From: Sideroxydans sp.
GTDB lineage: Bacteria > Pseudomonadota > Gammaproteobacteria > Burkholderiales > Gallionellaceae
Direction: 5' to 3'
Length of the DNA: 64,000 nucleotides
Assembly: GCA_024636935.1 (NCBI GenBank)
Contig: JAGXGC010000005.1
Span: 62,001-126,000 of the forward strand
Shown: piece by piece, positions 44,416 to 60,702 of the stretch
How the letters are laid out: each line of letters starts with the position of its first letter
How positions within the stretch are numbered: position 1 is the stretch's first letter
Translations under genes and position numbers: made by a program
The notes under the pieces: generated by a model
Told to the model about the DNA's origin: nothing
What the model saw: only the letters and a program-made list of their open reading frames with translations
Database searches by the model: none

Positions 44416-45161
44416 GTAAAAGCGAGACATTGATCGCGCACTTGGTTGAGTTGCGCTCGCGCTTGCTGAACAGTTTCTTGGCGTGGTTGCTGGTGTTCAT
44501 CTGTCTATTTCCGTGGGCATCCGATCTATATGCCTTGCTGGCGCAGCCCATGCTGGCTAAGCTGCCGCAAGGCGGGCAGATGATCGCCACCGATGTCACT
44601 ACGCCGTTCTTCGTGCCACTCAAGGTGGCGATGATGGCCGCCTTTGTGATCGCACTTCCTTTTGTTCTGTATCAGCTCTGGCGTTTTGTCGCACCCGGTC
44701 TGTATGCACACGAGAAGAAGTTGATGCTGCCGCTGATCATGGTTAGCACGTTGCTGTTCTTCTGCGGTATGGCCTTCGCATATTTTGCAGTGTTTCCGGT
44801 GGTGTTTGGTTTCATCACCGCTGCGGCACCTGTTGGTGTGGCGGTGATGACCGACATCGACAAATATCTGAGCTTTGTGTTGGGCATGTTCCTCGCCTTT
44901 GGTATCACCTTCGAAGTACCAATCGCAGTCGTGATATTGGTGCACATGGGTATGGTGTCGGTAGAGAAGCTGAGGGAATTGCGTTCCTATGTCATCGTCG
45001 GTGCATTCGTGGTGGCTGCAATCGTCACGCCGCCCGATGTTGTCTCGCAATTCATGTTGGCGATCCCGCTGTGGCTGTTGTACGAGGCTGGCGTAGTGGT
45101 GGCGTCTTGGATGGGAGTGCGCAATCGAACCTCAAACGACAGCGTGACGGATGACAACTGA
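44412..45161 (+). CDS. tatC: Sec-independent translocase subunit TatC
   Basis: A 249-residue receptor with six membrane helices. LIAHLVELRSRLLNSFLAWL is the signal-recognition N-terminus; FEVPIAVVILV carries the conserved Glu. It overlaps tatB by four bases and the next gene by eleven. Confidence 0.95.
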   Translation: MSKSETLIAHLVELRSRLLNSFLAWLLVFICLFPWASDLYALLAQPMLAKLPQGGQMIATDVTTPFFVPLKVAMMAAFVIALPFVLYQLWRFVAPGLYAHEKKLMLPLIMVSTLLFFCGMAFAYFAVFPVVFGFITAAAPVGVAVMTDIDKYLSFVLGMFLAFGITFEVPIAVVILVHMGMVSVEKLRELRSYVIVGAFVVAAIVTPPDVVSQFMLAIPLWLLYEAGVVVASWMGVRNRTSNDSVTDDN

Positions 45162-47613
45162 TTCAGCGCAAGCGCTGGTAGCGCAAACTTTTCAGCAAGC
45201 CGTTGAACTGCATCAATCCGGACGTGCGGCAGACTCAGCCGAACTATATCGGGCCATTCTTGGCATCCAGCCCCAGCATCCCGAAGCCAACCACAATCTC
45301 GCTGTAATCACGCTGCAAGCTGGTCAACCACAAGCCGCTATCCCTCACTTTCTTGCCGCCCTTGAAGCGGATCCGGAACGCGCTCAATTTTGGCTGAGCT
45401 ACATCGATGCGCTGGTGCAGGCCGGGCAAGATGACACTGCGCGCGAGGTTTTGCAGATGGGACGGCAGCAAGGTTTGCAAGGAGAAGAGGTCGATGCATT
45501 GGCGGCACGCTTGGAGGTAAACAGCGGGACGGCGAAGCCACGAAAGTCGGGGCAAAAGACACCGACACAAGCGCAACTCGACGAACTGGTGACGTTATTC
45601 AATCAGGGGCGTATAGCAGACTCGGCCGCTAGGGCGAAGGCGATGACCGAACAGTTCCCACAGCACGGATTCGGCTGGAAGGTTCTGGGGCTGGCTTTGA
45701 AGCAGATGGGGCGTAATGAGGAAGCACTCGTGCCGATGCAGAGGGCCGCTACCTTATCTCCGAAAGAAGCGGATGTGCACAGCAATCTAGGCGTGGCACT
45801 GCACGATGCGGGACGTTTGCAGGAAGCGGAAGCCAGTTATCGGCGTGCGTTGAAAATCAAACCTGACTATGCCGATGCGCATTGCAATATGGGTACCTTG
45901 TTGCAGGACATGGGGCGATTAACTGAAGCAGAAACCAGTCATCGTCGCGCAATCCGGCTTGCGCCAGATTTGGTTGATGCACATTACAACTTAGGCAATA
46001 CCTTTCGTGCTCAGGGGCGATTGGAGGATGCGGTGCAGAGTTATCGACGTGCTTTGGAGATGCGTCCCGCATACATCCATGCATGTTGCAATCTGGGAAT
46101 CGTGCTGCAAGATCAGGGCAAACTTGAAGAAGCAGAGGCGATGCTACGGAGGACGCTGGAACTCAAACCGGATCATGTCGAGGCATACAGCAACTTGGGT
46201 AACACACTCAAGGAACAAGGTCGGTTGATGGAAGCGGAAGCCTGTTATCGAAGGGCATTGGAACTGAATCCAGAACTGGCTGAGGTGCATAATAATCTCG
46301 GCATTCTGTTGCAGGACATGGGGAATCTGGATGAGGCTGAAGTGTGCTACCGGCACGCGTTGGCTCTCAAGCCGGATTACTTCAAAGCTCACAGCAATCT
46401 GCTGTTTCTGCTCAATTACAATCCCGGGATTACTCAGCAACTCGCATTCGAGGAGGCCCGTCGATATGGTGCTTCCGTCACAGCACACGCCAATAAGCGC
46501 TACAGTAAATGGTCGTGCACAAAAAGACCGAAGCGGTTGCGCATCGGTTTCGTCTCTGGCGATTTTCGCAATCATCCAGTCGGCTATTTCCTGGAGAACT
46601 TGCTGCGCTATCTCGACCGAGAAGCCTTCGAGTTGTATGCCTACCCCACTGATCCGTGGACGGACGAACTGACCTTGCGTATCAAATCCTATTTTGCAGC
46701 TTGGCACCCGATTTATGGTCTGAACGATGAAGCGGCCGCCAAGCGCATCCACGATGACGGTGTACACATCCTCGTCGACCTGTCCGGCCACTCGCGATAC
46801 AACCGCCTGCCCATGTTCGCCATGAAGCCCGCGCCGGTACAGGTGGCTTGGTTGGGCTATTTTGCGACGACAGGTGTGGCAGAGATGGATTACCTCATCG
46901 CTGATCCGGTGACCTTGCCGGAATCTCAGGAACGCTACTTCACGGAAAAGATCTGGCGCTTGCCCGAAACACGGCTGTGTTTCAGTCGTCCTGACGTTGA
47001 TATTGCGGTCTCGCTATTACCTGCGCTGGCGAACGGCTACGTCACCTTCGGTTGTTTCAATAACCTAGCCAAGATGAACGACGATGTGGTCATGTTGTGG
47101 TCGCGTGTGCTGAATTCGGTCGCGGACAGCCGGCTCTTTTTGAAATCGAAACAACTTGGCGAGGAGGCTGTCCGTCAGCAGACTATCGAGCGTTTCGCTG
47201 CACATGGCATTACAGCTGAGAGATTGATATTGGATGGAGCTGAATCACGTGCGAAATATTTCGAGGCCTACCACCACGTGGACATCTCGCTTGATCCTTT
47301 TCCGTATCCAGGCGGCACGACCACGGTAGAGAGTTTGTGGATGGGCGTGCCGGTGCTGAACCTGAGCGGAGAGTCATTCCTGTTTCGGCAGGGGGCTGGG
47401 TTCCTGAGTAATACTGGTCTGGAGGAGTGGTTTGTTACTTCGCAGGATGAATACGTCGCTAAGGCTAAAAGTTATGCAGCTGACCTGTCTGGATTGGCGG
47501 GGTTTCGTAACAGACTGCGCCAGCAAGTGGAGACATCCCCTGTCATGGATGGGCAGCGTTTCGCTGCGAATTTCTCAACAGCGCTACAAGGAATAGGTAG
47601 TGCAGATGTATAG
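45151..47613 (+). CDS. TPR and O-GlcNAc-transferase-like glycosyltransferase (GT41)
   Basis: An 820-residue protein. Residues 1-200 hold degenerate TPRs; about 209-412 hold six tandem 34-residue TPRs. The C-terminal half (about 450-815) is a GT41/SPINDLY-type catalytic domain: RIGFVSGDFRNHPVGYFLEN, VHILVDLSGHSRYNRLPMFA, PVQVAWLGYFATTGVAEMDY and the sugar-nucleotide site SLDPFPYPGGTTTVESLWMG. No signal peptide: cytoplasmic. GT41 enzymes put GlcNAc on Ser/Thr of proteins; in bacteria some modify adhesins or flagellin. Its start overlaps tatC by eleven bases, so it is probably co-translated with the Tat genes. Target unknown; flagellin is an inference. Confidence 0.88.
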   Translation: MTTDSAQALVAQTFQQAVELHQSGRAADSAELYRAILGIQPQHPEANHNLAVITLQAGQPQAAIPHFLAALEADPERAQFWLSYIDALVQAGQDDTAREVLQMGRQQGLQGEEVDALAARLEVNSGTAKPRKSGQKTPTQAQLDELVTLFNQGRIADSAARAKAMTEQFPQHGFGWKVLGLALKQMGRNEEALVPMQRAATLSPKEADVHSNLGVALHDAGRLQEAEASYRRALKIKPDYADAHCNMGTLLQDMGRLTEAETSHRRAIRLAPDLVDAHYNLGNTFRAQGRLEDAVQSYRRALEMRPAYIHACCNLGIVLQDQGKLEEAEAMLRRTLELKPDHVEAYSNLGNTLKEQGRLMEAEACYRRALELNPELAEVHNNLGILLQDMGNLDEAEVCYRHALALKPDYFKAHSNLLFLLNYNPGITQQLAFEEARRYGASVTAHANKRYSKWSCTKRPKRLRIGFVSGDFRNHPVGYFLENLLRYLDREAFELYAYPTDPWTDELTLRIKSYFAAWHPIYGLNDEAAAKRIHDDGVHILVDLSGHSRYNRLPMFAMKPAPVQVAWLGYFATTGVAEMDYLIADPVTLPESQERYFTEKIWRLPETRLCFSRPDVDIAVSLLPALANGYVTFGCFNNLAKMNDDVVMLWSRVLNSVADSRLFLKSKQLGEEAVRQQTIERFAAHGITAERLILDGAESRAKYFEAYHHVDISLDPFPYPGGTTTVESLWMGVPVLNLSGESFLFRQGAGFLSNTGLEEWFVTSQDEYVAKAKSYAADLSGLAGFRNRLRQQVETSPVMDGQRFAANFSTALQGIGSADV
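45775..46386 (+). repeat. Six tandem 102-base TPR-coding repeats
   Basis: Six in-frame 102-base units encode successive 34-residue TPR motifs with the pattern hxNLGxxLxxxGxLxEAExxYRRALxLxPDxxx. The nucleotide copies are diverged, so this is old protein repeat structure rather than recent duplication. Confidence 0.85.
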
Positions 47614-47626: not shown

Positions 47627-49357
47627 TTATCGTGGTTGCTTATCCTTGGCTGCCAGTTGCGTCAGTTCAATGAAATGGTCCACTTGCGCCCATGCATTTT
47701 TGAGTACGACATCTTCGTAGAAGGTACGGTAGTTTGTAACATTGGTCGTTGCTAGGGCGATAGATTCCGGACTGTTATCCATCACCACCCCCCAATCGCT
47801 TGTATAGGAATAGTTTGCTACATGGCTGCGCCAGTAATCTGTTACGAGGATAGAGACTGGGCAGCCACAGAGTAGTGCTTCTGAAATCAAAGCAGTCGGC
47901 TCGTAGACATAGAGAACTTTGCTGTTTCGTAATATTTCTGCGATCTGTGGATGACTGAGCTGCTGGTCTTTTCCTAGACTGATCGCATCGTTTAGGTGCG
48001 GGGCAAGTTGACCACCTGCAGCCAGATATTTGTGCGCATAGAAACATACTTGCTGCCGGTTAACGTCATCCGCGTTGTCTTCATTGTTGAACAGAGACAG
48101 GTCGCTGGTCGGGATATGCAATGTTTCGCCGTTCATGCCGTCGACCAGATAGAGCGGATCGAAAGTAAAGATTAATTCGTCTTCGGCAAATTGTGTGTCA
48201 CCCCCTATATGTCCGGGCTTGTTAAGCAACCAACGTGCTACAACTTTTGCACCGAAAGGATTGCCCGAGACAATCTCAGGATAGACCATGATCGGGGTGC
48301 TGCCTGCATCATGGTGCCGCACCATCGTCTCCTCGGTCAGCACAGGTGTCCTCAGGTGGGGAACAGTTTTTTCACAGGTGACATAGGCTTCCTGCCCACT
48401 TTCATTGAGAGCATGGCACAAATAATGGAGGGCTCGTATGCCTGCGGATTGCTGGATGAAATCGAGCGCGAAGATGTAATAGGGTGCCTTATTGGCTTTG
48501 AAGAAAGTTCGTTTGAGGAAGAATGGTGCTGTATCCAACGAGTGGTGGATACGACGCAGATTCCTTTGGCAGTTGAGCCATACGTCGGATAGTTCGGTGT
48601 CGTCGAGGAAGCCTTGTATGCTTTTGAAGCTGCTAAATACACCACTCCAAGAAAAGCGATTTGCGGGGGCATCGGTCAAAGAAATGAACAGGGCGTTGTT
48701 GCATTCATGCGCATGAAGGTTCTGATCGCTGTCCAGAAGACATAACTCGTCTTGATCGAGGCTGCTAAAACTGACTCCCGAATTGCGCAATGCATCATCA
48801 AAAGCTTGCGCCATCACTCTAATGGTTTCTTGGAAAGCATCGGCAGGTAGCGTTGCCTGGCTGATAGCAGTTAAAGCAACTGGGAATTTGCCGGATAGCT
48901 TGGGCCTAGATGATCGAGGGAAGGCTGCGAGCCACATGGGTAAGGGGTAGGTTTTCGCATCCGAGTCGGTGAATAGGCTGCTACGAACGCAATCTTGCAG
49001 AACAATCCGTTCGATGAGCGATGACAGATCGTGCGATACCAAAGTGTGTGGAGGGCAATAGATCACCAGTTCTTCATCGTATGCCTCATCAAGAAAACTC
49101 AGCGGCCAGAAATTTCGGTAGCTGGCTGCAGTGTCGGCAGTGATTGTAGATATTTGGATTGGATAACTGGCAGCAAGCTGGTGGCAGATTGCAAGTGTGT
49201 CTCTGCTCGCGCCTTCCGGCAGCTTGATCGTGAACGCGGTGTTCGCATAATATGGTCCGGCATTGAGCTTCCATGAGCGCAGGAAGTAGTTGAGCGCGTT
49301 GTGGCAGGCAGGCAGGTCGACGCAGAAGGTCGCAACTCGGATATTTATTTCGAGCAT
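47627..49357 (-). CDS. Large glycosyltransferase-like protein
   Basis: A 576-residue cytoplasmic protein. The C-terminal half (about 285-560) looks like a GT-B glycosyltransferase of the GT4/WsaF kind: IFALDFIQQSAGIRALHYLC, MVYPEIVSGNPFGAKVVARW, and near the end VLYVYEPTALISEALLCGCP, the donor-site E-x7-E-like block. The N-terminal half (1-280) matches nothing I recognise. Last gene of the leftward accessory operon, overlapping the radical SAM gene before it by 13 bases. Stop converges on the OGT gene with 13 bases between. The donor and acceptor are unknown. Confidence 0.6.
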   Translation of the reverse strand: MLEINIRVATFCVDLPACHNALNYFLRSWKLNAGPYYANTAFTIKLPEGASRDTLAICHQLAASYPIQISTITADTAASYRNFWPLSFLDEAYDEELVIYCPPHTLVSHDLSSLIERIVLQDCVRSSLFTDSDAKTYPLPMWLAAFPRSSRPKLSGKFPVALTAISQATLPADAFQETIRVMAQAFDDALRNSGVSFSSLDQDELCLLDSDQNLHAHECNNALFISLTDAPANRFSWSGVFSSFKSIQGFLDDTELSDVWLNCQRNLRRIHHSLDTAPFFLKRTFFKANKAPYYIFALDFIQQSAGIRALHYLCHALNESGQEAYVTCEKTVPHLRTPVLTEETMVRHHDAGSTPIMVYPEIVSGNPFGAKVVARWLLNKPGHIGGDTQFAEDELIFTFDPLYLVDGMNGETLHIPTSDLSLFNNEDNADDVNRQQVCFYAHKYLAAGGQLAPHLNDAISLGKDQQLSHPQIAEILRNSKVLYVYEPTALISEALLCGCPVSILVTDYWRSHVANYSYTSDWGVVMDNSPESIALATTNVTNYRTFYEDVVLKNAWAQVDHFIELTQLAAKDKQPR

Positions 49358-50745
49358 GGCAATGAGCTGGTTCGATTGATGAAAGTGGTTTTGGAGTCTG
49401 GGAGCCGGGCGGACTCAATATGGATATATTGCTTGCCGACCCCCTGTTCGCCTGAGAATGGCAACATGACGCCTCCCTCACCGCAATGTGCACAGCTGGC
49501 GTATGCCTCGACCTGATCCAGTTTCTGGATGTTTGAGCGCAGTTCTGCAGCGTTAGCGTTGTCATCAAGTACGGCCCAATCTTCTGGGTAGTCTGCCTGA
49601 TGGTGGGAGCCGACACCCGCCGTAGTCGAGCAGGGGTAATACACGCCATTTTGCACAGTTTTGCAGGTATGTCTAGAGTTGCAGCCAGCCTTCATCGCTG
49701 CCAAGGTGGAAGCAGGCAGATCCAGTTTGCGCAGGGAGGCGGGTGTCGCCCAGATCGGTTGTCCGATCGTATAGCTGAAACCCGCGGCGGATACTTTATT
49801 GATGTTGCGTTGGAACAAAGCCTTCTGTTTATTGTTCAGTGCTGGTGTGTAATCAGAAAAGATCAGACGGGTACGGTGGCGATCCAGCCCGGAAAGAAAT
49901 GCATCGCTGATGTCGCACACGCCATTAGTGGTGATTCCAATTACGCCGAAGTTTGGCTTGCCCAGAATATGGTCGACGATCTTGTCTAGGTCTGGGTGCA
50001 GGAAAGGCTCTCCTCCGATGATCGATACGTAGCCGATAGCATCGACTGCCTCGAGCATGCGGTCAATATCGGTCAAGATGCGAGAAAGCGGGAAGTTAAT
50101 TCGGTCATCAGGATGGTAGTGATTGATGTACTGACCGCAATGCGTGCATTTCAGTGTGCATTTCTGGTTCACTACAAAAGTGAGTAGCGGCAGCACCAGC
50201 TCATCTTCGAATCGGAGTAGTCCGGAGTCTCGGCACTGTTTGAGCAACAGGCTAGGTAAACGCTCGCAGGCACACCAGTTGCAGAACGGTGTTCCGATAC
50301 AGACTTTGGCGTCGAATCCGGTTTCAGATTTCATACTGCACATCAATGCTTCGAATAGCGCCATGCCGGAAAGATAGTGTTCGAAGCCGCGAGAATGAAA
50401 CTCAGCTTCGCCAACACTGCCGGAAAGACTGCCATTGGGAATGCAGTTGATGATGAGTGTTTCTGCTGGGACTAAGGTCTGCGCAAACGGAAGATGGGTC
50501 GCGATACCGTTCACTGTACCCAATTCCGGCGCGCGTATATCCCAGTAGCTCAAACGCTCAGTCATGAAACCGATGGATATCAGAAAACCACCGAAGGCGC
50601 TGCCGAATTTTCCCGCACCACGCAAAACGACATGTGAAAAACTGTGCAAATGGGATATGAGCGCAGCTTCATGCTGATTCTCGCCGCGTCGAGCTAGCTC
50701 CAATAATTCATTTATATTTGTCAGGCGAGTTCCAATCATAGTCAT
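49345..50745 (-). CDS. Rossmann-radical SAM fusion protein, copy 2
   Basis: A 466-residue protein. Residues about 35-110 form a nucleotide-binding-like Rossmann module with RGAG at 42-45 (VVLRGAGKFGSAFGGFLISI). Next is a cysteine block C149-x5-C155-x2-C158-x-C160-E-R. The radical SAM domain follows with C196-x3-C200-x2-C203 (CTLKCTHC) binding the 4Fe-4S cluster, and IIGGEPFLHPDLDKIVDHIL (GGEP motif). The C-terminal region has more Cys (TCKTVQNGVYYPCS, CAHCGEG), perhaps an auxiliary cluster. Same architecture as the protein at 51945-53315. The reaction is unknown. Confidence 0.82.
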   Translation of the reverse strand: MTMIGTRLTNINELLELARRGENQHEAALISHLHSFSHVVLRGAGKFGSAFGGFLISIGFMTERLSYWDIRAPELGTVNGIATHLPFAQTLVPAETLIINCIPNGSLSGSVGEAEFHSRGFEHYLSGMALFEALMCSMKSETGFDAKVCIGTPFCNWCACERLPSLLLKQCRDSGLLRFEDELVLPLLTFVVNQKCTLKCTHCGQYINHYHPDDRINFPLSRILTDIDRMLEAVDAIGYVSIIGGEPFLHPDLDKIVDHILGKPNFGVIGITTNGVCDISDAFLSGLDRHRTRLIFSDYTPALNNKQKALFQRNINKVSAAGFSYTIGQPIWATPASLRKLDLPASTLAAMKAGCNSRHTCKTVQNGVYYPCSTTAGVGSHHQADYPEDWAVLDDNANAAELRSNIQKLDQVEAYASCAHCGEGGVMLPFSGEQGVGKQYIHIESARLPDSKTTFINRTSSLPCSK

Positions 50746-51923
50746 GACTCAGCTCCGTGCAACAAATGGATGACCGGATTATCCAGTCCCAAATCTCGTA
50801 TCGACTGTTCAATGCTCTGAGCGGAGTTCATGCCGCAGATCACGATAGCGCCTTTGAAGGTAGACAAGGATTGCGGCGACGCTATGCTCAGTCCCAATAG
50901 TTTTTGTCCTTGCAATTGAGGATTTCGATCTACCAGATGTTTTATGCGGCAATGTTTGAGTGGTGTGTGGGTGAGCAAGCGGTAGACAAAGGTTGACACG
51001 CCCCACAGCGCGATCTCACGGTCTCCGAGTTGGGCGATATTGTCGAGCACAGTCAAACCGAAAGGGTTGGCTTGCGAAAGGCTTTGCTCCACGAACTGTC
51101 TTTCCACTGTGCTATGGAATATATTCTTTTCAACAGAAGCGACTTCAAAAAGTGCGCGGATACATGGATATATCTCGGAAGATGATTCGAACTGGATCAA
51201 ATTGAATCCGCGCATCAGATTCAGCAAGGAATACAGGCTGAAATGATTGATGTGTTCATATTCGTAGAAAAATCCGGGGAACGGTGCCGCGCGCTGAAAA
51301 AGAGATAAGTCTGGCAACTCGATGTAAAGACGTCCACTGGGTTTGAGCCACTTAGCCACGTTATTGATCGCTTCTAGTGGTGAATACAGGTGCTCAAGCA
51401 CATGACGTAACAATATCAGGTCGAATTTTTCTTCAAGTTCAGGTGCATCTTCGGTGGCGAAGCCGGTACGTCCATTTATGTTCTGCTGTGACAGGTAGCG
51501 AATCGCCGAACGATCGGGATCCATCGCATACAGGTTCTCATGCCCTCGTTGGCGCAGTGACATCAGCGTTATGCCGTAGGAACAACCGATGTCAGCAATC
51601 GCTTGGGTGCTCGCTTGCAAAGCATGTTGCGAGAGGAAGTCCACGGTCAATTCATTCAACCTCGCCTGTTCTGGCGTGATCGAGTATTCGACACGGTCTG
51701 CTCCGGTATAGCTTTCGTAGTAACCGTCCCGATCTGCAAAAGGTTCGATGTCATGGAAGGCCATGCCGCATCGATCGCAAATATTGATTGAGAATGAATG
51801 TTGAAGCTGAAAGTCTTCCGGAACGATCAACTCGAGGTGGCGCAGCGGAGTGGCAGCTCGCGAATCGCAAACTGGGCAGGTACGGTTGGAGGAAGAAATC
51901 GCGATTTTATTTTTGTGCGTCAT
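50742..51923 (-). CDS. Sugar C-methyltransferase-like SAM methyltransferase, copy 1
   Basis: A 393-residue three-part protein. A zinc-binding N-terminus has CPVC (about 17-20) and CDRC; the SAM-binding Rossmann fold follows with ADIGCSYGI and ILLRHVLEHLYSPLEAI; the C-terminal module begins IALWGVSTFVYRLL, a second nucleotide-binding-like fold. This layout is that of NDP-hexose C-methyltransferases (TylC3-like). It overlaps copy 2 of the radical SAM fusion by four bases and sits 21 bases behind copy 1, so the three are one unit. Confidence 0.8.
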   Translation of the reverse strand: MTHKNKIAISSSNRTCPVCDSRAATPLRHLELIVPEDFQLQHSFSINICDRCGMAFHDIEPFADRDGYYESYTGADRVEYSITPEQARLNELTVDFLSQHALQASTQAIADIGCSYGITLMSLRQRGHENLYAMDPDRSAIRYLSQQNINGRTGFATEDAPELEEKFDLILLRHVLEHLYSPLEAINNVAKWLKPSGRLYIELPDLSLFQRAAPFPGFFYEYEHINHFSLYSLLNLMRGFNLIQFESSSEIYPCIRALFEVASVEKNIFHSTVERQFVEQSLSQANPFGLTVLDNIAQLGDREIALWGVSTFVYRLLTHTPLKHCRIKHLVDRNPQLQGQKLLGLSIASPQSLSTFKGAIVICGMNSAQSIEQSIRDLGLDNPVIHLLHGAES

Positions 51924-51944
51924 GGCTATATCTTCTGGGCTAAC

Positions 51945-53315
51945 TTATTTGGCAGCTACTACTGGGATACGGATACGGCTCTTACCGCCTGGCAGAGTGT
52001 ATCGTTCGATAAATCCCTGTTCGGCAGCACTGCCTGTGAGAGCGGGCGAGCCGAAAGATTCACAATGCCCACAGGCACCATAGTAGGGGCGTTGCAGCAG
52101 GAGGAGTATCTCGCTACGGATTTCCTCCGGACTTTTTTGCGGATCTAGCACGACATAGTCTGAAAGGTAGTCCGCCACACCAAGGTCTTGGATAGAGAGT
52201 GTGAACGAGCACGGGAAGAGCTTGCCATCGAAGACGTACAGATAGCGCACGCCACAACTTTGCTTCTTTTGTATCTTGGTTGCTTCCGAATCGTGCTTGT
52301 CTTCCAGCGTGGAAGAGATATTCCAAGTTGGCAGTGAATTCTGGTATTTCGCATTGACACCGGCGGCGCGCGCCATCTCGATGTTGCGATAGAAAGCGGC
52401 GGTCCGTTTCTCATCCAGCACTTCTAAGTAGTTTGAAAAGGCTAGACGGATGCGCGTATCTTGCAGGGTATCCATCTGCGCTGGATTGATCGGTTCGATA
52501 CCGTTGGTATTGACGATCACAGCGCCGAAGTTGTTATGACTCAGCACGCCGCCAATGATTTGGTCGATGTCTTTGTGTAGGAATGGTTCACCGCCAAAGA
52601 TGTTGACCACCCCAAAGGAGTGGACTGCTCGCATCACCACCTCGATATCCTGCAATATCTGCGCTGTGTTGACGTTCTGCTTGCGTTCTTTGGTATAAGT
52701 ATTGATATAGAGGAAGCAGTGTGTGCATTTTAGATTGCACACATTGTTGGTGATGAAATGCACACGGTCAAAAGACAGCGTTTCATCGGGCTCCAGTGCC
52801 TGTTTGCGTGCGGCATCTGCGCGTACGATGCTATGCAGCCTCTCACAGGAGCAGACGCTGCAGATGTCGAAGCTGTTGCATATCTTCGCAATGGCCGGCT
52901 TATCGTTCGCCAGCGGACAGAGCAAGGCCTGCAGCAGGTCGTTGCCGTGAACCACATGCTCCCATCCATTCTCGCCGAGCTGACGCTGGATGTTAGGCCC
53001 TACAGCGACATTGCCGATGCAGAACAGAACCAGCGTGGCCTCACGCTCGAAACCCCCGGAGAATGGCGTGACAACAGTCAGACCATTACGACTGCCGATC
53101 TTTTCAGCTTGCGAATCCCAGTAGCAGGCAGGCGTGATGCCGAGTTCAAGCAGCTTCTCACCAAGGGCGGAGCCTAGATTTCCTGCCCCCCAAATGACAG
53201 TGGTTTTATACATGCGACAGAAGTCGACGAACACTTTCGGATCCAAACGGTCGCCGTTGCGCGCCGCGAGCAGGAATGGCTGGATGATGTCTGTTGATGG
53301 ACCGGGCTTCAACAT
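51945..53315 (-). CDS. Rossmann-radical SAM fusion protein, copy 1
   Basis: A 456-residue paralogue of the protein at 49345-50745. The Rossmann module has WGAG at 42-45 (TVIWGAGNLGSALGEKLLEL). The Cys block is C146-x5-C152-x2-C155-x-C157-E-R. The radical SAM cluster site is C193-x3-C197-x2-C200 (CNLKCTHC), with VVNIFGGEPFLHKDIDQIIG. The C-terminus carries LFPCSFT and ACGHCESFG. Spacing between the blocks is almost identical in both copies. It overlaps the upstream tandem glycosyltransferase gene by seven bases. Function unknown. Confidence 0.82.
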   Translation of the reverse strand: MLKPGPSTDIIQPFLLAARNGDRLDPKVFVDFCRMYKTTVIWGAGNLGSALGEKLLELGITPACYWDSQAEKIGSRNGLTVVTPFSGGFEREATLVLFCIGNVAVGPNIQRQLGENGWEHVVHGNDLLQALLCPLANDKPAIAKICNSFDICSVCSCERLHSIVRADAARKQALEPDETLSFDRVHFITNNVCNLKCTHCFLYINTYTKERKQNVNTAQILQDIEVVMRAVHSFGVVNIFGGEPFLHKDIDQIIGGVLSHNNFGAVIVNTNGIEPINPAQMDTLQDTRIRLAFSNYLEVLDEKRTAAFYRNIEMARAAGVNAKYQNSLPTWNISSTLEDKHDSEATKIQKKQSCGVRYLYVFDGKLFPCSFTLSIQDLGVADYLSDYVVLDPQKSPEEIRSEILLLLQRPYYGACGHCESFGSPALTGSAAEQGFIERYTLPGGKSRIRIPVVAAK

Positions 53316-54805
53316 GGCATGCTCCCCGCAGGGGCGGGATAGGAAACGGCACGTTTCATCGCTTCAGCGGAATCCTGCAATAGTTTTGTCAGAGCGTCTT
53401 GCCGTGCTTGTTTATCCAAAGCCCAATATGCGGACAGTTGCGCATGAAGTGCACTGCTCTGAACTGAGGGGGCGATGGCGGAGGAAAGATGGAAGTAGCG
53501 CTGAGCGCCAGTTTCATCGGCAACGGATAGGCTGCGCAGGCAGTAGCGTAGACTTAGGTGCGCCACCTTTTCGATGGCAGGCTGTAATCTGTCACGTGCT
53601 TTTTGCATATCCGGATAGTTGGCGGCGACATCCGAGAGTTGGTGCAACAGGACGAATTCACCCATGCATTGCAACAGATTTCCGTTCATTCCGGCACTCT
53701 CACTTTGTCCATGGATACGGTTCAACAACAGAGGCTCTTTGATGTATACGATGGGCGAGTCACAGCAAATGTGAAAATCCATGATGCGGTCGCCAAACCA
53801 GCGGTCATTGAGATTTCCTGACATGCGTTTTCCCTGTGTCTTCTCAACCTTGTAAAGGATCTGAGAGATGCTGGGGTTGACTGAAGACATCATGTAGACA
53901 GCCGCTTGTTCGTTGCCCGGAATCAAGCAGGATTGATCGTAGAATGAGGGTTCTGAGCTACAGTTCCCATCCTCGTCCATGATGTCACGATGCACCATGG
54001 CAAAGGCGGCATCAGGGTGGCGCTCAAGAGAGGTTAGGCAACGTTCGATGAATGTGGGCTGGATAGCGTCGTCCGAGCATAGCTTCAACATGTACTTGCC
54101 GCCCATGTTCAACAGGCAGTTCCACAGATTCACGTTGGGGCCGTAATTTATCCGGTTGCGCGTGAGGCTGATCTTGTCCGGATACTTCTCGGCGTATTCC
54201 AGCGCGATGGCCCACGAATCATCTGTCGAGGCATTGTCGGAGAAACAGATTTCGATGTTCTCATAGGTCTGTGCAAACACACTGTCCAGACACTGCCGCA
54301 GGTATCTTCCGTAGTTGAAGTTATAGATGCAGATGCTAACCAGAGGAAACTTTCGACGATCTTGCATCGAGATGCGTCGCATCGGGTTATGCGGTGGCAT
54401 GAAGACGTTGGCACGATTCAAGCGGGAGATGTAGGTGTGAGCAATTAGCTCATCTGCTTCCATACTAGCTATGCAGTCCTGTACATAGCTAGCATCGAAA
54501 TCGACGCCTATTGCCAGCTCGACGCTGTATTTACCTTTGCAAAGCTGCATCCCTTTATGCCGATTGGACCTCCCCCCCATACACTCACGGTTTCGGCTGA
54601 TCGTTATTTTTCCGGGATGCTCAGTACAGTATTGATTGGCAATTTGCCAAGCCCCGTCCGTTGATCCGTCATCGCACACGATGACCTCAAGATCGCGGAG
54701 GAGAGATTGCTCGAATATCGAGCGTAAGCAGCGTTCAATGCTGTGTCCCGGATAGTTGTACAGCAGAATGCTGAGCAAAGGTGATGTGTTCTCTTGGTCA
54801 AGCAT
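53309..54805 (-). CDS. Tandem GT2-type glycosyltransferase
   Basis: A 498-residue protein with two GT-A (family 2) parts. The first (about 8-125) is short: LLSILLYNYPGHSIERCLRS and VIVCDDGSTDGAWQIA. The second (about 150-330) is fuller: VSICIYNFNYGRYLRQCLDS, IEICFSDNASTDDSWAIALE and the DXD-like LKLCSDDAIQP. The last 130 residues are helical and unassigned. It probably transfers a sugar from a nucleotide donor; the short first part may be non-catalytic. Upstream gap to the epimerase gene is 96 bases. Confidence 0.8.
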   Translation of the reverse strand: MLDQENTSPLLSILLYNYPGHSIERCLRSIFEQSLLRDLEVIVCDDGSTDGAWQIANQYCTEHPGKITISRNRECMGGRSNRHKGMQLCKGKYSVELAIGVDFDASYVQDCIASMEADELIAHTYISRLNRANVFMPPHNPMRRISMQDRRKFPLVSICIYNFNYGRYLRQCLDSVFAQTYENIEICFSDNASTDDSWAIALEYAEKYPDKISLTRNRINYGPNVNLWNCLLNMGGKYMLKLCSDDAIQPTFIERCLTSLERHPDAAFAMVHRDIMDEDGNCSSEPSFYDQSCLIPGNEQAAVYMMSSVNPSISQILYKVEKTQGKRMSGNLNDRWFGDRIMDFHICCDSPIVYIKEPLLLNRIHGQSESAGMNGNLLQCMGEFVLLHQLSDVAANYPDMQKARDRLQPAIEKVAHLSLRYCLRSLSVADETGAQRYFHLSSAIAPSVQSSALHAQLSAYWALDKQARQDALTKLLQDSAEAMKRAVSYPAPAGSMPC

Positions 54806-54901: not shown

Positions 54902-55957
54902 TTATTCCCTTTGTCTGCCAGAGCAAGCAGCAGTGTACTGGATACTTTCACCCAGATCGGTCCATGGTGCCAAGCACAGTTTGTTTCGTGCCTTTGTGAT
55001 ATCCGGCACATACCGGTTGCGTGCCGCGTTGCCAATGCTGTGTTTGGTGTCGCCCAGTACCCGGATGTTTTTGTCGGGACTTAGGGTGTCGCGCACCTGC
55101 TTTGCTAGTTCATAGATACTGACCGCCTCGTCGGAGCCAACGTTGTATATCTCGCCGCTGCGGCCTTGCAGCAACAGCGTCAGCAACCAAGTCACTAGGT
55201 CACCAAGGTAGAGGTAACTGCGCAGGTGCGTTCCGTCGCCCTTCACCACGATCTCGTCTTTGCTTAAGGCCTGAGCGATGAAGTTGCCGATCGCATAGTG
55301 CAGGTCGAGCGGCATGAACGGGCCTGCGAATGAGAAGCAGCGTGCGATGGTGTTGTTCCAGCCATGCTTGTTCGCGTAGTAACTGGTGAGATATTCCGCC
55401 GCCCGCTTGGCTTGTCCTAGTGCTGTATCTACATCGCAGGTATCCGGTGCACCCATATAAGTTTCCGGCATGTGCGTCATGTCGGCAGGCTGGGTGCCAT
55501 AGGCCACGCCAGAACTCAGGAACAGAAAGCGTTCGATGCCGTACCGTGTCGCGAAGTCGAGCACGTGGCGCGTACCGTCCACCAGTGTGTCGAATTTATT
55601 CAATGGATCTTCGCCGTGGAACGTCTCACTGGCCGAAGTGGTCGCGCCGTGGATGATGTAATCGAAACGCGCTTGCGGAAATTCAAAGTCGCGCACGTCA
55701 CCGTTGTGCAGGGTAAGTGCTTTATCACTAGCGAGATGGGGGGCTTGTTGTGCGAACGCTTGTGCATTGCGCGTAAGTACGGTTACGCGCAATGCCAGTC
55801 CAAGTTCTCGGTTGGCATGGAGCAAAGCTTCAAGCAGCCAGCGCCCGAACAGTCCGGTACCGCCGGTGAGGAAGATCGCGCGGCAGCGCAGCGCCGCCCA
55901 CAACGCTGGTGAGCGCTGCATGATACGGGCGAGGTCTTGCGCCAGCACATCGTTCAT
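54902..55957 (-). CDS. NAD-dependent epimerase/dehydratase family protein
   Basis: A 351-residue extended short-chain dehydrogenase, the sugar-nucleotide epimerase type. The NAD-binding TGGTGLFG is at 31-38, the catalytic Ser is in FLFLSSGVAYG (about 149), and Lys184 is in ALGQAKRAAEYL. The Tyr normally four residues before this Lys (Y-x3-K) is Leu180 here, so classical hydride-transfer catalysis may be altered or lost. ATG 55957 forms an ATGA overlap with the HAD gene stop; an in-frame ATG at 56008 is less likely. Expected substrate is an NDP-sugar. Confidence 0.83.
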   Translation of the reverse strand: MNDVLAQDLARIMQRSPALWAALRCRAIFLTGGTGLFGRWLLEALLHANRELGLALRVTVLTRNAQAFAQQAPHLASDKALTLHNGDVRDFEFPQARFDYIIHGATTSASETFHGEDPLNKFDTLVDGTRHVLDFATRYGIERFLFLSSGVAYGTQPADMTHMPETYMGAPDTCDVDTALGQAKRAAEYLTSYYANKHGWNNTIARCFSFAGPFMPLDLHYAIGNFIAQALSKDEIVVKGDGTHLRSYLYLGDLVTWLLTLLLQGRSGEIYNVGSDEAVSIYELAKQVRDTLSPDKNIRVLGDTKHSIGNAARNRYVPDITKARNKLCLAPWTDLGESIQYTAACSGRQRE

Positions 55958-56607
55958 GGCTGCACTTTCTCGGTTAACAGATCGAGAGGTTGTTGTAGCC
56001 AATGCCATTCCGTTGGCAGTGTAGACGTCACAAGATCACCATAGCCCCAGGCTGCATAATGGAAGCGCAGGCTGTTCGCAGCAGCAGCTTGTCCATCCTC
56101 AAGTTTGTCGCCGATGTAGCAGGCGTGTAGCGGTGACAGACCGAGTTCGGCGAGTTGTTTTTGCAGCAAAGCTGCTTTGCTGGACAGACGCGGCTCCACC
56201 ATATCCAGTGCGTAGACCGAACTAAAATATTGTCGCCATTCAAGGTGATCGAGGATGGACTGTGTGGCTGAGAGGCGTTTATTGGTGGCGATGTGCAGCA
56301 CGAAGCCCTCTGCCGATAATCGTTGCAGCAGTTGCTCGATGCCTGGATAGGCGTCCGTGGCGGTGACACCGTCGCGGTCGTAATGTGCCTTGAAGCGTTC
56401 GGTCAATGTTTGGATCAGTACTGTGTCGTTACTGCCGCTGATACGACTCAGCGTCTCGGCCAGTGGCGGGCCGATCAATCGATCATCCAGTTCGACTTGC
56501 GGTGTGAGCCCAGTTTCTTTTAGCGCGGAGGCAAAGGCAGACAGGATTGCGGGTGCGGAATCGATCAGCGTTCCGTCGAAGTCGAATATCCAATGCCGTA
56601 TCGTCAT
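55954..56607 (-). CDS. HAD family hydrolase
   Basis: A 217-residue HAD phosphatase similar to phosphoglycolate phosphatase (Gph-like). Motif I is FDFDGTLIDSAP (nucleophile Asp9), motif II is in HIATNKRLSATQ, and motif III/IV are in KAALLQKQLAELG and CYIGDKLEDGQAA. The cap is helical. It may remove phosphate from a sugar or lipid intermediate of the cluster. Overlaps the epimerase gene by four bases and lies three bases after the orphan gene. Confidence 0.85.
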   Translation of the reverse strand: MTIRHWIFDFDGTLIDSAPAILSAFASALKETGLTPQVELDDRLIGPPLAETLSRISGSNDTVLIQTLTERFKAHYDRDGVTATDAYPGIEQLLQRLSAEGFVLHIATNKRLSATQSILDHLEWRQYFSSVYALDMVEPRLSSKAALLQKQLAELGLSPLHACYIGDKLEDGQAAAANSLRFHYAAWGYGDLVTSTLPTEWHWLQQPLDLLTEKVQP

Positions 56608-57398: not shown

Positions 57399-58514
57399 TC
57401 AGCCGATGAGTGTGTCGCTGTCCGAAAAACCTTGCCCCCAAGGGACAGGCAGTTGGGTGACGCCTTTGGTTTTTTCGGTATGGAGTTTGATGAACTGCGG
57501 ATCCTCGCCGATGATGCAGTCTGGTCGATATGGCCCCAGCCAAGGATTGCGCATGCCACGCGCGAGCACTTCCTTGAGCGGCGTCTCGCGCAGGTTGCCG
57601 AGCGAGAAGTCGATGTAAGGGCAAGGTGTGACTTCAAAGGTGGAGGTCACGGTGATGATGCCCTTCACCGTGATGCAACCCTTGAACGAACCGTAGCTCG
57701 GCGTCATGTGAGTGAATACGTTGTAGTCCTTTTCCAGCTCGCGAAGGATGTCGGCATCTTCTTTTTCAATGACGAATTCCGGATGGTCGGTGCAGGAGCC
57801 GGTGGGCTTGGCATAGGAAACATACAGGCCGATGTTGCGCTCGGTGGCGAACTTACACATCTCTAGGAATTCCGACGACTTGGCACGACCTTTCACTAGC
57901 ACGGTGGATAACAGCAGATTGAGGCCAGCTTCTACCGATGCTTCGATGGCGCGCATCACTTTCTTGTACGAGCCTGGCTTGTTGCGGAAGGCGTCGTGTT
58001 CCGCCTCAATCATGCTATCCAGTGACAACTGCACTTTTTCTACGCCGATGGATTTAAGATGTTTCGCCGTGGCAAGATCAAGGAACCAGCCGTTGGTGTC
58101 GGTGATGATGTAATGCTTGTCTGGATCGATAGCTTCCACTACAGCATCGAAATCCTTCATCACCAGCGGCTCGCCACCGGTGATCACGAAACGCGCCAGA
58201 CCGAGCTCATCGGCTTGGCGCGACAATTCGCGAATGTCGTCGAGGTCGATTTTGCGGCGCGCATCCTCGATCTTGAACACCTTTTTCTGGTGGCGATCCA
58301 TGTAGTACTCGGCCGAGCAGTGCGTGCACTGAAAATTACACAGATAACTTTTTTCCAGACGGATGATGGGGCTGATCTCGCCGCGCTCCTCCATCTCGGA
58401 GATCGCAGCCAGCTTGGCAGCCACATAAGGTTTGCGCACGCGTAAGCCTTCGCGCTTGGCCTGTTCTTCTGGAGTGAGCTTGTTCGGCTGGGTTTCGTTA
58501 GTCATAGTTGTCAT
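57399..58514 (-). CDS. Radical SAM protein with SPASM-like C-terminus
   Basis: A 371-residue radical SAM enzyme. The cluster site is C59-x3-C63-x2-C66 (LCNFQCTHC), followed by RFVITGGEPLVMKDFDAVVE and the strand TDTNGWFLDL. The C-terminal part has further Cys (GSFKGCITVKG, EVTPCPYIDFSLGNL, PDCIIGED), typical of a SPASM-like auxiliary cluster. ATG 58514 has GGAG seven bases upstream; the alternative ATG 58520 overlaps the B12 radical SAM stop as ATGA. Either start gives translational coupling. Substrate unknown. Confidence 0.85.
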   Translation of the reverse strand: MTTMTNETQPNKLTPEEQAKREGLRVRKPYVAAKLAAISEMEERGEISPIIRLEKSYLCNFQCTHCSAEYYMDRHQKKVFKIEDARRKIDLDDIRELSRQADELGLARFVITGGEPLVMKDFDAVVEAIDPDKHYIITDTNGWFLDLATAKHLKSIGVEKVQLSLDSMIEAEHDAFRNKPGSYKKVMRAIEASVEAGLNLLLSTVLVKGRAKSSEFLEMCKFATERNIGLYVSYAKPTGSCTDHPEFVIEKEDADILRELEKDYNVFTHMTPSYGSFKGCITVKGIITVTSTFEVTPCPYIDFSLGNLRETPLKEVLARGMRNPWLGPYRPDCIIGEDPQFIKLHTEKTKGVTQLPVPWGQGFSDSDTLIG

Positions 58515-58516
58515 AG

Positions 58517-60181
58517 TCATTCTCCGCAATGCTCGGCGGCACGGCTGCCGAGCGGGATGTTATAGCGCTGCACATATTTTTCCCAGAGCTGGCTGGTGGG
58601 ATAAGAAGCTTCGGCCTGTTCCATCAACTGGTCGGCGAGCTCTTGGTGTCCCAAATGGTGATGGCAAATGGAAGCGTAATACAGGCCCAATGCATGATCC
58701 GGTTTGGCGGCCAATGCATTTTCAAATCCCTTCAGTGCAACATCGTAATGTCCGAGGCGCATGTCGGCGTTATAGACAAAGTTGAGTTCGATGTTCAGGT
58801 CGTAGGTCGCCTCCTGAATGAATTGCGGATCAAAGTCTTCGGTGCCGACGATGGCTTTTTTGTAGTTGCTCTCTATGACGACGCCTTTGAAGTAGTTCTT
58901 CTCTTCACAGATGTCGTGCATCTCGCTGCCCTGTAAGGGTGTGGCGACGTTGATGCGGAACCAGTTGGCGTCGACCGTGCGCAAAAAGTTACGTGTGTCC
59001 TCGATGTCTTGTTTTCTTTCACCAGGCAAGCCGAGCAGGATATTGCAGTCTGTGTAAATGCCGATCTCGCGACAGTCTTTGGCGACGCGCCGCACGATAT
59101 CGAGCTTCAGCGGCTTCTTCATCACGTTCTTCAGCACATAGTCGCTGCCGGATTCGACGGCCAAAATCAATTGTTCGACACCGGCCTCCTTCAGCGCGAC
59201 CAGCATCTCGTGACTCAAAGCATAAAGCGCAAGTGAATTTGGGAAGAAGGCAGTCAATCCGAGTTCGCCGATGTATTTGACGATATCGTAGGCGCGTTGC
59301 TTGTCGCCCATAAAATGGTCGTCCTCGAGTGTGACGACTTTGACGTCGTATACCTCTTTCAATTGCAGGATGTCTTCCTTTACACGCGCCAGTGAGTGGT
59401 AGCGCATGTCGCGGCCATGCGTGCGGTGCGAGGCGCAGAAGATGCATTTGAATGGGCAACCGCGCGAGGTCATGATGTTAAAGCTTCGCCCCTTGGATTT
59501 GACCGAGGAATAAGAGCGTATGGTTGGATTCAGTTCGTAATCGTCGAGGTCGATAAGCGAGTAATCGAACGGTACCTCATCCAACGCTTCGAGAAAGTGA
59601 TGCGCGAATTCTCCGGAGCCAGAAGCTTTGTCGCGAGTGATCCATGCATCGCTACTGGCCACATAGGCATTCATGTCAGCGGCTTTCAGCAACTCGAGCA
59701 GCGGAATTTCGCCCTCGCCATGACAGACCGCATCGAACACATCGCTGTGCTCAAAGATATCCTGATAGGACACCGTCGGTACGTTTCCGCCCGCGATGAC
59801 GAATGCATCGGGCAATAGTTCGCGCGCGACTTCACCAAGATCGATCAGGCTGTGGAATGCGGTGGAGAACAATGCGGAGATGCCAATCACATCTGGACGT
59901 GAATGTTCGATCTCTTCTTTTAGCACGTCGCGGAAATATTCTTTGAACGATGGCCAGTCAAAAAGATCCAGTTTATTTAGTGCCACGTTGAAGTCGATGG
60001 CGCGTGTATCGACCTCGATATGTTTCTTCAGATAGGCCGACAGTGAAATAATACCTAGTGGCATGTCGGTGATAACCGAGCCGTAAGCGCGACCGTGCTG
60101 TTGCTGCACCTTTACGTTGGAAGGCGGCGTGACGAAATCTTCATATCCGATGTTGGGCGGGACGATGAACAGTATCTTCAT
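58517..60181 (-). CDS. B12-binding radical SAM protein with TPR tail
   Basis: A 554-residue protein. Residues 1-190 form a cobalamin-binding Rossmann fold (MKILFIVPPNIGYE, RPDVIGISALFSTAFHSLID, VIAGGNVPTVSYQDI). The radical SAM site is C242-x3-C246-x2-C249 (RGCPFKCIFCASH), with VVTLEDDHFMGDKQRAYDIV and NILLGLPGERKQDIEDT after it. About 465-530 form TPR-like helices (GHYDVALKGFENALAAKPDH). B12 radical SAM enzymes often methylate unactivated carbon. ATG 60181 overlaps the Nudix stop (ATGA); a longer in-frame start is not supported. Confidence 0.88.
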   Translation of the reverse strand: MKILFIVPPNIGYEDFVTPPSNVKVQQQHGRAYGSVITDMPLGIISLSAYLKKHIEVDTRAIDFNVALNKLDLFDWPSFKEYFRDVLKEEIEHSRPDVIGISALFSTAFHSLIDLGEVARELLPDAFVIAGGNVPTVSYQDIFEHSDVFDAVCHGEGEIPLLELLKAADMNAYVASSDAWITRDKASGSGEFAHHFLEALDEVPFDYSLIDLDDYELNPTIRSYSSVKSKGRSFNIMTSRGCPFKCIFCASHRTHGRDMRYHSLARVKEDILQLKEVYDVKVVTLEDDHFMGDKQRAYDIVKYIGELGLTAFFPNSLALYALSHEMLVALKEAGVEQLILAVESGSDYVLKNVMKKPLKLDIVRRVAKDCREIGIYTDCNILLGLPGERKQDIEDTRNFLRTVDANWFRINVATPLQGSEMHDICEEKNYFKGVVIESNYKKAIVGTEDFDPQFIQEATYDLNIELNFVYNADMRLGHYDVALKGFENALAAKPDHALGLYYASICHHHLGHQELADQLMEQAEASYPTSQLWEKYVQRYNIPLGSRAAEHCGE

Positions 60182-60702
60182 TGCGATATTCCCCCGGCTG
60201 GATGCGCGAAATATCGCTGGTATACCCGCTGTGGTGGAATCAGTTTCTCGGGAGGGACATCGTGCCAAGCCCATTCGCCATGACTGGGGGAGTCTGAAGT
60301 GAAGGCAAGGTGCGGAGACAGCGGACCTGTCAATTTGCATTCATACAGCAAAGAGATGAAATGCCCGCGCGTGTCACGACCCGAGGCCATCATCTCGGTG
60401 ATAGCCAGCGGTGCTTCGTTGAATTCAACGGTAGTTTCTAATTCTGTCTGTGCCACTTTTTTGATCCGTTGTGCCGCCGTTTCTTTGAAACGGATGATGC
60501 CGCCAGGTATATGCCAGGAGGGGCCATAAAATCTATCTTCCCGCCATGTCAATAACGTCCGATTTTCGGAATCCTTTAGCATAAGATCGACATTGACCAT
60601 GGGCGTGAGTCGGCTAACCAACTGAAATACTTCTTCCGGCAAGCCTTGTTTCGGATCGGCTATGCGCGATTCCAGTTCAGCAATTAACTTCTCAAGTTCC
60701 AC
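60178..60702 (-). CDS. Nudix protein resembling GDP-mannose mannosyl hydrolase
   Basis: A 174-residue Nudix fold protein. The Nudix box (from IPGGIIRFKETAAQR to VAQTELETTV) lacks the usual REUxEE: the segment reads KVAQTEL. GDP-mannose mannosyl hydrolases (Gmm/NudD) deviate in the same place, and TLLTWREDRFYGPSWHIPGG fits that family. It may act on a GDP-sugar. GTG 60702 is chosen (GGAG ten bases upstream); ATG 60723 is an alternative. Both overlap the end of the methyltransferase gene. Confidence 0.75.
   Translation of the reverse strand: MELEKLIAELESRIADPKQGLPEEVFQLVSRLTPMVNVDLMLKDSENRTLLTWREDRFYGPSWHIPGGIIRFKETAAQRIKKVAQTELETTVEFNEAPLAITEMMASGRDTRGHFISLLYECKLTGPLSPHLAFTSDSPSHGEWAWHDVPPEKLIPPQRVYQRYFAHPAGGISQ

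What the first reader, a model, noticed from the sequence alone, without database searches (positions are those of the whole stretch)
49345..53315. Two Rossmann-radical SAM fusions share a four-cysteine block of unknown role
The proteins at 49345-50745 and 51945-53315 both read: Rossmann-like module with R/W-G-A-G at residues 42-45, then C-x5-C-x2-C-x-C-E-R (149-160 and 146-157), then the radical SAM CxxxCxxC (196-203 and 193-200), GGEP, and a C-terminal Cys pair. Spacing is almost identical although the rest of the sequence has diverged widely. I know no named radical SAM family with a Rossmann module and this Cys block in front of the core; the four cysteines could hold an auxiliary Fe-S cluster or zinc. 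A methyltransferase gene lies between the two copies.
Basis: partly seen in the sequence, partly recalled or inferred. Interest (0 to 1): 0.75.

Follow-up and report, generated by a model that had tools for sequence, protein, structure and literature searches.

The report
Radical SAM pair with extra cysteines
Two neighbouring bacterial genes encode radical SAM enzymes of an unnamed family that sits in sugar-making gene clusters, and these two (with counterparts in one other genome) carry an extra conserved cluster of cysteines that probably holds a metal site of unknown role.

Summary
In detail: both proteins (minus strand) have the motifs at the stated residues and are full-length paralogues (33% identity). 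Three corrections. (1) The C-terminal "Cys pair" is the end of a four-Cys twitch motif for one auxiliary cluster. (2) The Rossmann–radical SAM fusion is not peculiar to this pair: 18 further fusions were aligned, and 16 of them, from several bacterial families, two records listed as plasmids and four viral contigs, lack the N-terminal Cys block. (3) The block is an extra segment at the domain joint found in one group of four proteins: the window pair and an orthologue of each in one genome of another family. There all four Cys, plus two more, are invariant. Context: a sugar-biosynthesis island with four radical SAM genes, a ThDP enzyme and a NeuB-type synthase; its scaffold recurs in another family and its middle is strain-variable. 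Best reading: twitch radical SAM enzymes modifying a carrier-linked sugar precursor, the Rossmann module binding a nucleotide, the Cys block an extra metal site (Fe–S somewhat likelier than Zn).

The parts
51945..53315 (-). P0002, Rossmann-[4 Cys block]-radical SAM-twitch protein, 456 aa
49345..50745 (-). P0001, paralogue of P0002, 466 aa
53115..53189 (-). P0002 Rossmann fingerprint G43xG45xxG48...D67 (G43 and D67 in 20 of 20 aligned proteins)
   Evidence: family profile matches the Rex NADH-binding domain
50539..50619 (-). P0001 Rossmann fingerprint G43xG45xxG48...D69
52845..52880 (-). P0002 four-Cys block C146-x5-C152-x2-C155-x-C157
50266..50301 (-). P0001 four-Cys block C149-x5-C155-x2-C158-x-C160
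52716..52739 (-). P0002 radical SAM CX3CX2C (C193, C197, C200)
50137..50160 (-). P0001 radical SAM CX3CX2C (C196, C200, C203)
52062..52256 (-). P0002 twitch cysteines C354, C369, C415, C418
49483..49683 (-). P0001 twitch cysteines C355, C372, C418, C421
50742..51923 (-). P0003, SAM methyltransferase between the pair; its C-terminus resembles their Rossmann module
53309..54805 (-). P0005, family 2 glycosyltransferase
47627..49357 (-). P0004, no Pfam or NCBIfam match; homologues next to the GT41 gene in G004, G006 and G1731; in G1729 flagellin and further ORFs lie between
45151..47613 (+). TPR-GT41 (O-GlcNAc-transferase-like) glycosyltransferase at the island's end
54902..56008 (-). NAD-dependent sugar epimerase/dehydratase
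57399..58529 (-). P0006, radical SAM protein, island scaffold (84-88% identical in G1244, G004 and G1729)
58517..60340 (-). P0007, B12-binding radical SAM protein with TPR
60692..61840 (-). P0008, methyltransferase with Methyltransf_14 and (below cut-off) Methyltransf_13 domains
61847..63682 (-). acetolactate-synthase-like ThDP enzyme, island scaffold

Best explanation
P0001 and P0002 are two non-redundant radical SAM/twitch enzymes of a strain-variable cassette in a surface- or flagellin-glycan island. Proposed mechanism: the N-terminal Rossmann module binds a nucleotide (most likely the nucleotide end of an NDP-sugar, possibly NAD) and presents the sugar to the radical SAM barrel; the [4Fe-4S] cluster on CX3CX2C cleaves SAM; the 5'-deoxyadenosyl radical takes H from a sugar carbon; the four-Cys twitch cluster takes or returns the electron, giving a BtrN-like dehydrogenation or an epimerisation. 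The four-Cys block is a lineage-specific segment at the Rossmann-barrel joint that holds an extra metal site (Fe-S about 60%, Zn about 40%), with a structural or electron-relay role. Shown: the motifs, homology, twitch signature, conservation of the block in its group, gene context. Inferred: substrate, reaction, metal, role of the block.
For: Radical_SAM in 17 of 17 scanned members; twitch motif CX9-15GX4C..CX2C in 18 of 20 including both window proteins (motif from passages of PMC6231123). Four-Cys-ligated twitch as in BtrN, a dehydrogenase of a sugar-like aminocyclitol (passages of PMC9012708). Best solved relative of the family profile over core plus twitch is 7wzv, E 5e-16. The Rossmann profile matches Rex (E 1e-9), a UDP-sugar dehydrogenase entry (3e-6) and VioB (0.0017); a like module is found in an FkbM methyltransferase, an SDR and the neighbouring methyltransferase, the ordinary epimerase control being negative. 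Block invariant in 4 of 4, one branch of the tree, support 100/99 and 100/100. Island with NeuB, ThDP enzyme, epimerase, GT2, GT41; RfbH, CDP-glucose dehydratase and glucose-1-phosphate cytidylyltransferase beside it, and flagellin next to GT41, in G1729.
Against: No structure model, no biochemistry, no substrate. Neither window protein matches any Rossmann family of Pfam at E 1. BtrN itself is not among the PDB profile matches. The C-terminus of P0008 gave only a weak match to the module (18%). Orthologues of the pair were found in one other genome only, and the E of C-x-C-E-R is K in one of them. Flagellin as acceptor rests on gene neighbourhood alone.
Confidence: 0.6

Rival explanations
1. 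The four Cys form a purely structural zinc site that stiffens the joint between Rossmann and radical SAM domains; it plays no part in electron transfer.
For: 16 of 16 relatives outside the group do without the block while keeping the radical SAM cysteines, so the common chemistry does not need it. Zinc-type domains occur on sugar methyltransferases (recalled); P0008 of this island has a Methyltransf_13 match, below its cut-off (27.2 of 31.3 bits).
Against: CX5CX2CXC is not a usual zinc spacing as far as I recall; the segment alone matches no zinc family in Pfam and nothing in the PDB sequences.
Confidence: 0.35
2. The block is an auxiliary Fe-S cluster that acts in the reaction as sulfur donor or electron port, as the N-terminal CX4CX5C cluster does in lipoyl synthase.
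For: Position in front of the core as in LipA, whose N-terminal Cys motif holds a sacrificed [4Fe-4S] cluster (passages of PMC12246082); invariance of the four Cys.
Against: Different spacing, no RSSY string in P0001 or P0002, a twitch motif is already present, and I see nothing in the island that calls for a thiosugar.
Confidence: 0.1
3. The proteins mature a peptide or protein (for instance flagellin or a RiPP) rather than a sugar.
For: SPASM/twitch domains are known in peptide maturases (passages of PMC6231123); flagellin is the neighbour of the island in G1729.
Against: The N-terminal domain is a Rossmann module of a kind also found on sugar-related proteins. By reading the ORFs, family members lie beside sugar genes. 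No search for a precursor peptide was made.
Confidence: 0.1
4. The Cys block is inherited without function.
For: Distant relatives lack it.
Against: Kept in two paralogue lines that are 33% identical and in two genomes of different families, with synonymous codon changes at the Cys.
Confidence: 0.05

Closest known systems
PDB 7wzv/7wzx/7x0b, '4Fe-4S cluster-binding domain-containing protein' (322 aa)
   Same: Radical SAM core and twitch-type Cys pattern align over chain residues 43-267 (family profile E 5e-16; P0002 alone 7e-6, core only).
   Different: 42 residues lie before the match, too few for the Rossmann module; whether they hold a Cys block was not seen. Its function is not given by the tool (I recall, unchecked, the spectinomycin dehydrogenase SpeY; searches found no paper).
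BtrN (2-deoxy-scyllo-inosamine dehydrogenase)
   Same: Twitch domain with an auxiliary [4Fe-4S] cluster on four Cys (passages of PMC9012708).
   Different: Not among the PDB profile matches; no Rossmann module or N-terminal Cys block (recalled).
Lipoyl synthase LipA
   Same: An auxiliary Cys motif N-terminal to the radical SAM core (passages of PMC12246082).
   Different: CX4CX5C plus RSSY against CX5CX2CXC without RSSY.
Sugar C-methyltransferases with Methyltransf_14 domain and PglD-type acyltransferases
   Same: Rossmann module of the same wider kind (Methyltransf_14 in 5 and PglD_N in 4 of 17 family members at E 0.1).
   Different: Other catalytic domains; the window pair itself gives no such Pfam match.
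Rex redox sensor
   Same: Best PDB profile match of the module (E 1e-9); Rex binds NADH there (recalled).
   Different: Rex has a DNA-binding domain and no Fe-S domain (recalled).

Membership tests
Radical SAM superfamily | CX3CX2C and GGE motifs; Pfam PF04055 above cut-off | tested here: met
   37.8 bits against cut-off 29.5 for both proteins; motifs
Twitch subgroup | CX9-15GX4C, gap, CX2C after the core | tested here: met
   motif in P0001, P0002 and 16 of the other 18 aligned proteins
Twitch subgroup | one auxiliary Fe-S cluster bound there | not testable with these tools
   needs purified protein or a structure
SPASM subgroup | seven-Cys motif, further CX5CX3C gap C after CX2C | tested here: not met
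   no Cys after C418 in P0002, only C464 after C421 in P0001
BtrN-type dehydrogenases | sequence relation to BtrN | tested here: not met
   BtrN structure 4M7T not listed at E 0.1 with the 9-sequence profile (24 matches) or at 1e-4 with the 17-sequence profile (11 matches)
BtrN-type dehydrogenases | SAM-dependent two-electron oxidation of a C-OH | not testable with these tools
   needs purified enzyme and substrate
Lipoyl synthase | N-terminal CX4CX5C and C-terminal RSSY | tested here: not met
   block is CX5CX2CXC; no RSSY string in either protein
MoaA (TIGR02666/TIGR02668) | NCBIfam curated cut-off | tested here: not met
   31.6 of 284 bits (P0001, TIGR02666) and 38.8 of 325 (P0002, TIGR02668)
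N-terminal-twitch radical SAM (NF033640) | NCBIfam curated cut-off | tested here: not met
   19.3 and 24.7 of 170 bits
Unnamed Rossmann-radical SAM-twitch family described here | N-terminal Rossmann module with G43 and D67, CX3CX2C, GG at 241-242, Y296, W331, C369, CX2C | tested here: met
   A9 alignment, 20 of 20
Methyltransf_14 / PglD_N / CoA_binding Rossmann families | Pfam gathering score in the window proteins | tested here: not met
   no such hit for P0001 or P0002 at E 1; related only through the family
Fe-S or Zn protein at the four-Cys block | metal bound by the four Cys | not testable with these tools
   structure prediction unavailable; metal needs purified protein

The most novel reading that the evidence does not exclude
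The Cys block (perhaps with C133 and C99) is a third Fe-S cluster that sits between a dinucleotide-binding Rossmann domain and the radical SAM core and takes part in catalysis, for instance as a built-in electron port fed from NAD(P)H through a partner, or as a sulfur donor to the sugar: a radical SAM architecture not known to me so far.
Probability: 0.1. Interest if true: 0.75.

Novelty: new variant of a known kind. Interest (0 to 1): 0.45.

Why it matters
Radical SAM enzymes with an N-terminal Rossmann module form an unnamed family in glycan islands of several bacterial groups, and also on viral contigs, and I found no known product for any. The window pair adds a conserved metal-type motif that can be tested by simple metal counting, and the like module on radical SAM, FkbM, SDR and methyltransferase proteins suggests one common carrier for the pathway. 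The ThDP enzyme, and in the relative the CDP-glucose genes and RfbH, point to a branched dideoxy-sugar pathway of the yersiniose kind (inference), giving a concrete substrate class to try.

Tried and rejected
Rejected: (a) 'the fusion is unique to the pair': 18 others aligned. (b) 'the whole family has the block': 16 of 20 lack it. (c) a lipoyl synthase: spacing and RSSY not met. (d) chance: shuffles and orthologues. (e) the + strand reading of the stated coordinates.

Read in frame, 43 of 117 have a stop-free core, 1 of 117 (L101) a GxEP-like string behind it, in a Cys-repeat ORF of 125 aa, and 0 of 117 an ORF with block and radical SAM core at any nearby spacing, so the scan says nothing on rarity. 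Viral-contig scans with P0002 alone, A1 and the strict pattern found no relative. tblastn on phages: no match. Profile searches of 198, 198, 126 and 148 genomes around L087, L099, L100 and L055 (E limits 1e-15, 1e-15, 1e-18, 1e-18) and of 8 handled genomes (1e-10; a ninth, L021's, too large) found nothing; the outputs warn that an empty answer shows little. Centred on the Arcobacter locus, 14 of 200 genomes had a core relative (16 loci); 0 of 16 has the block or a GxGxxG in its first 120 residues. Search of the block segment in Pfam and PDB: only DUF4279 below cut-off for P0002, otherwise nothing. Paper searches: in the listings I saw no paper on this fusion or block; the library holds open-licence papers only.

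Left out of the 20-protein alignment: 23 of 27 loci (no Rossmann module seen by eye); L211-L219 (9 of 13, not examined; L207-L210 are the contigs of L146-L149); the 16 loci; L028; the core-only relatives (16 of its 18 hit genomes, the other two being the own genome and G076; by eye); the weaker plasmid hits (H3, H4 and H7-H15); duplicates (L001-L003, L023, L196, L201, L205, L206).
Full report
OBSERVATION. The two ORFs lie on the minus strand. P0001 and P0002 align over 434 positions at 33% identity. Their 185 N-terminal aligned columns are 27.6% identical, but six cysteines coincide, against a mean of 0.30 in 200,000 shuffles, none of which reached six; codons of three of the four block cysteines differ synonymously. 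The pair also shares C99 and C133 (P0002 numbering). The genes overlap their neighbours (P0005/P0002 by 7 bases, P0003/P0001 by 4, P0001/P0004 by 13) or lie 21 bases apart (P0002/P0003; coordinates), which fits one operon.

WHAT KNOWN FAMILIES SAY. Pfam finds Radical_SAM only above cut-off, 37.8 bits in both. NCBIfam gives many weak hits to the core; of those shown (25 of 39 and 25 of 62) none is near its cut-off. The C-terminal cysteines are four, not two: C354-x9-G-x4-C369 and C415-x2-C418 in P0002, C355-x11-G-x4-C372 and C418-x2-C421 in P0001. This is the first part of the SPASM motif CX9-15GX4C-gap-CX2C, i.e. a twitch domain for one auxiliary cluster (motif read in passages of PMC6231123). 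The remaining SPASM cysteines are absent. BtrN is a twitch enzyme whose auxiliary [4Fe-4S] cluster has four Cys ligands and which oxidises a sugar-like aminocyclitol (passages of PMC9012708).

RELATIVES. Twelve genome searches (1887 genomes, repeats included), plasmid tblastn and viral contig scans gave 18 further proteins with an N-terminal Rossmann module in front of a radical SAM core, aligned with the window pair as A9 (20 rows). Sources: six genomes of the same order or phylum, one copy each (L004, L024-L027, L194); three genomes of one other family of the order (G1244 with three copies, L195 twice and L197; G1731, L203; G1729, L202 and L204); a Nonomuraea record listed as a plasmid (L021); a Brachyspira plasmid (L022); four viral contigs (L146-L149). 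Within its own family, 1 of 158 genomes, the window's own, had a match at E 1e-12. Invariant in all 20: G43, D67, C193, C197, C200, G241, G242, N271, Y296, W331, C369, C415, C418 and Q433. The twitch motif is found by pattern in 18 of 20, the misses being L022 and L149.

THE CYS BLOCK. CX5CX2CXC occurs in 4 of 20: P0001, P0002, and L202 and L204 of genome G1729, which lies in another family of the same order. In most of the other 16 the alignment has a gap there, in L146 and L147 other residues; none has the motif. In the four, C99, C133, C146, C152, C155, C157 and R159 are invariant; E158 is K in L204. C99 also occurs in L021. A tree puts the four on one branch (100/99), split into a P0002/L202 and a P0001/L204 pair, each 100/99; that run warned of long branches with L022, and without L022 the result is the same (100/100). 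The trees are rooted at the midpoint for drawing only, so gain of the block in this group or loss in the rest is not decided; a gain is simpler if the root lies outside. Either way the block predates the duplication, and the pair has been inherited or moved together. Some relatives have other cysteines in this linker: CxxCH in L024-L026, L197 and L203.

ROSSMANN MODULE. A profile of the module (14 sequences) matches the NADH-binding domain of Rex (E 1.3e-9), a UDP-D-quinovosamine 4-dehydrogenase entry of 141 residues (3.4e-6) and VioB (0.0017). Of 17 family members scanned, 5 match Methyltransf_14, 4 PglD_N and 3 CoA_binding at E up to 0.1; the window pair matches none. Profile comparison finds a like module at the C-terminus of the methyltransferase between the pair (probability 88.6%, E 2.6e-6), in an FkbM methyltransferase (97.7%) and in an SDR (97.4%) of the related island L197; the C-terminus of P0008 is weak (18%) although Pfam sees Methyltransf_14 there; the ordinary epimerase control gives 1.7%. 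One module on several enzyme types of one island suggests a common nucleotide or carrier handle (inference).

CONTEXT. Read along the minus strand, the island runs from a NeuB-type synthase (starting just inside the window's end and running past it; L173) and an acetolactate-synthase-like ThDP enzyme through methyltransferase P0008, a NUDIX protein, a B12-binding radical SAM protein, a radical SAM protein, an unmatched protein, a HAD phosphatase-like protein, an epimerase and a GT2 to P0002, P0003, P0001 and P0004, with a TPR-GT41 gene converging. G1729 has the same gene order with one more ORF between P0001 and P0003 and flagellin plus further ORFs between the GT41 gene and P0004: P0001 68%, P0003 66%, P0002 73%, GT2 68%, B12 radical SAM 79%, ThDP enzyme 76%, NeuB 78%. 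Beyond NeuB lie RfbH, CDP-glucose 4,6-dehydratase and glucose-1-phosphate cytidylyltransferase, all three above NCBIfam cut-offs; the flagellin is recognised by several models, below their cut-offs. In G1244 the same scaffold (ThDP enzyme 78%, radical SAM 84%, GT2 47%) carries a tandem pair of Rossmann-radical SAM proteins without the block a few genes past the GT2. In two genomes of the window's own genus (G004, G006) the scaffold flanks a different middle with no copy of P0001/P0002 in the stretches read. The pair therefore belongs to a strain-variable cassette of a sugar island. A ThDP flavoprotein, YerE, installs the two-carbon branch of yersiniose (passages of PMC4753412); that this island makes a branched CDP-dideoxy sugar is my inference.

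MECHANISM. Most likely (0.6) the pair are twitch radical SAM enzymes acting on a carrier-linked sugar, one step each, by H abstraction followed by oxidation or epimerisation. Shown: sequence motifs, homology, context. Inferred: substrate, reaction, order. For the block I put Fe-S at about 60% and Zn at about 40%; an N-terminal auxiliary cluster in front of the core has a precedent in lipoyl synthase (CX4CX5C; passages of PMC12246082), but spacing and RSSY differ, so this is no membership. A catalytic role of the block is not needed by the family's common chemistry, since 16 of 16 relatives outside the group lack it.

LIMITS. Only two genomes with the block are known to me; my single genome-contig scan was uninformative. 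The name of PDB 7wzv is generic in the tool; SpeY is recalled, not checked.

VERDICT. A real and well-described observation; the fusion is ordinary within an unnamed family; the Cys block is a genuine, conserved, group-specific addition of unknown role. New variant of a known kind, interest 0.45.

Noticed in passing
47627-63682 and L173:680-2185; L199, L200, L197, L220/L221, L222: A sugar island with a conserved scaffold (NeuB, ThDP enzyme, radical SAM, HAD) and a strain-variable middle recurs in the genus and in another family; in G1729 its GT41 gene is next to flagellin, and glucose-1-phosphate cytidylyltransferase, CDP-glucose dehydratase and RfbH genes follow NeuB.
   Followed up: partly
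L146-L149 (viral contigs): Rossmann-radical SAM genes on four viral contigs; PHROGs finds head, packaging or connector genes close by on three of them (L147, L148, L149; L146 not tested for these) and a nucleotide-sugar epimerase on L146; glycosyltransferases seen by eye.
   Followed up: partly
L197:10904-12202, L197:13687-14853: A like Rossmann module is fused to an FkbM methyltransferase and to a short-chain dehydrogenase in one island.
   Followed up: yes
L197:2039-3268, L203:1090-2325: These Rossmann-radical SAM proteins read GGDAF in place of GGEPF.
   Followed up: no
L024-L026, L197:2039-3268, L203: A CxxCH pair stands in the linker before the radical SAM core, at another place than the window's Cys block.
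   Followed up: no
47627-49357: P0004 matches no Pfam or NCBIfam model; its homologue in G1729 sits in a 1558-residue open frame and that of G006 in a 301-residue one.
   Followed up: no
56611-57624: A protein without any Pfam match belongs to the conserved scaffold (58-75% identical in four relatives).
   Followed up: no
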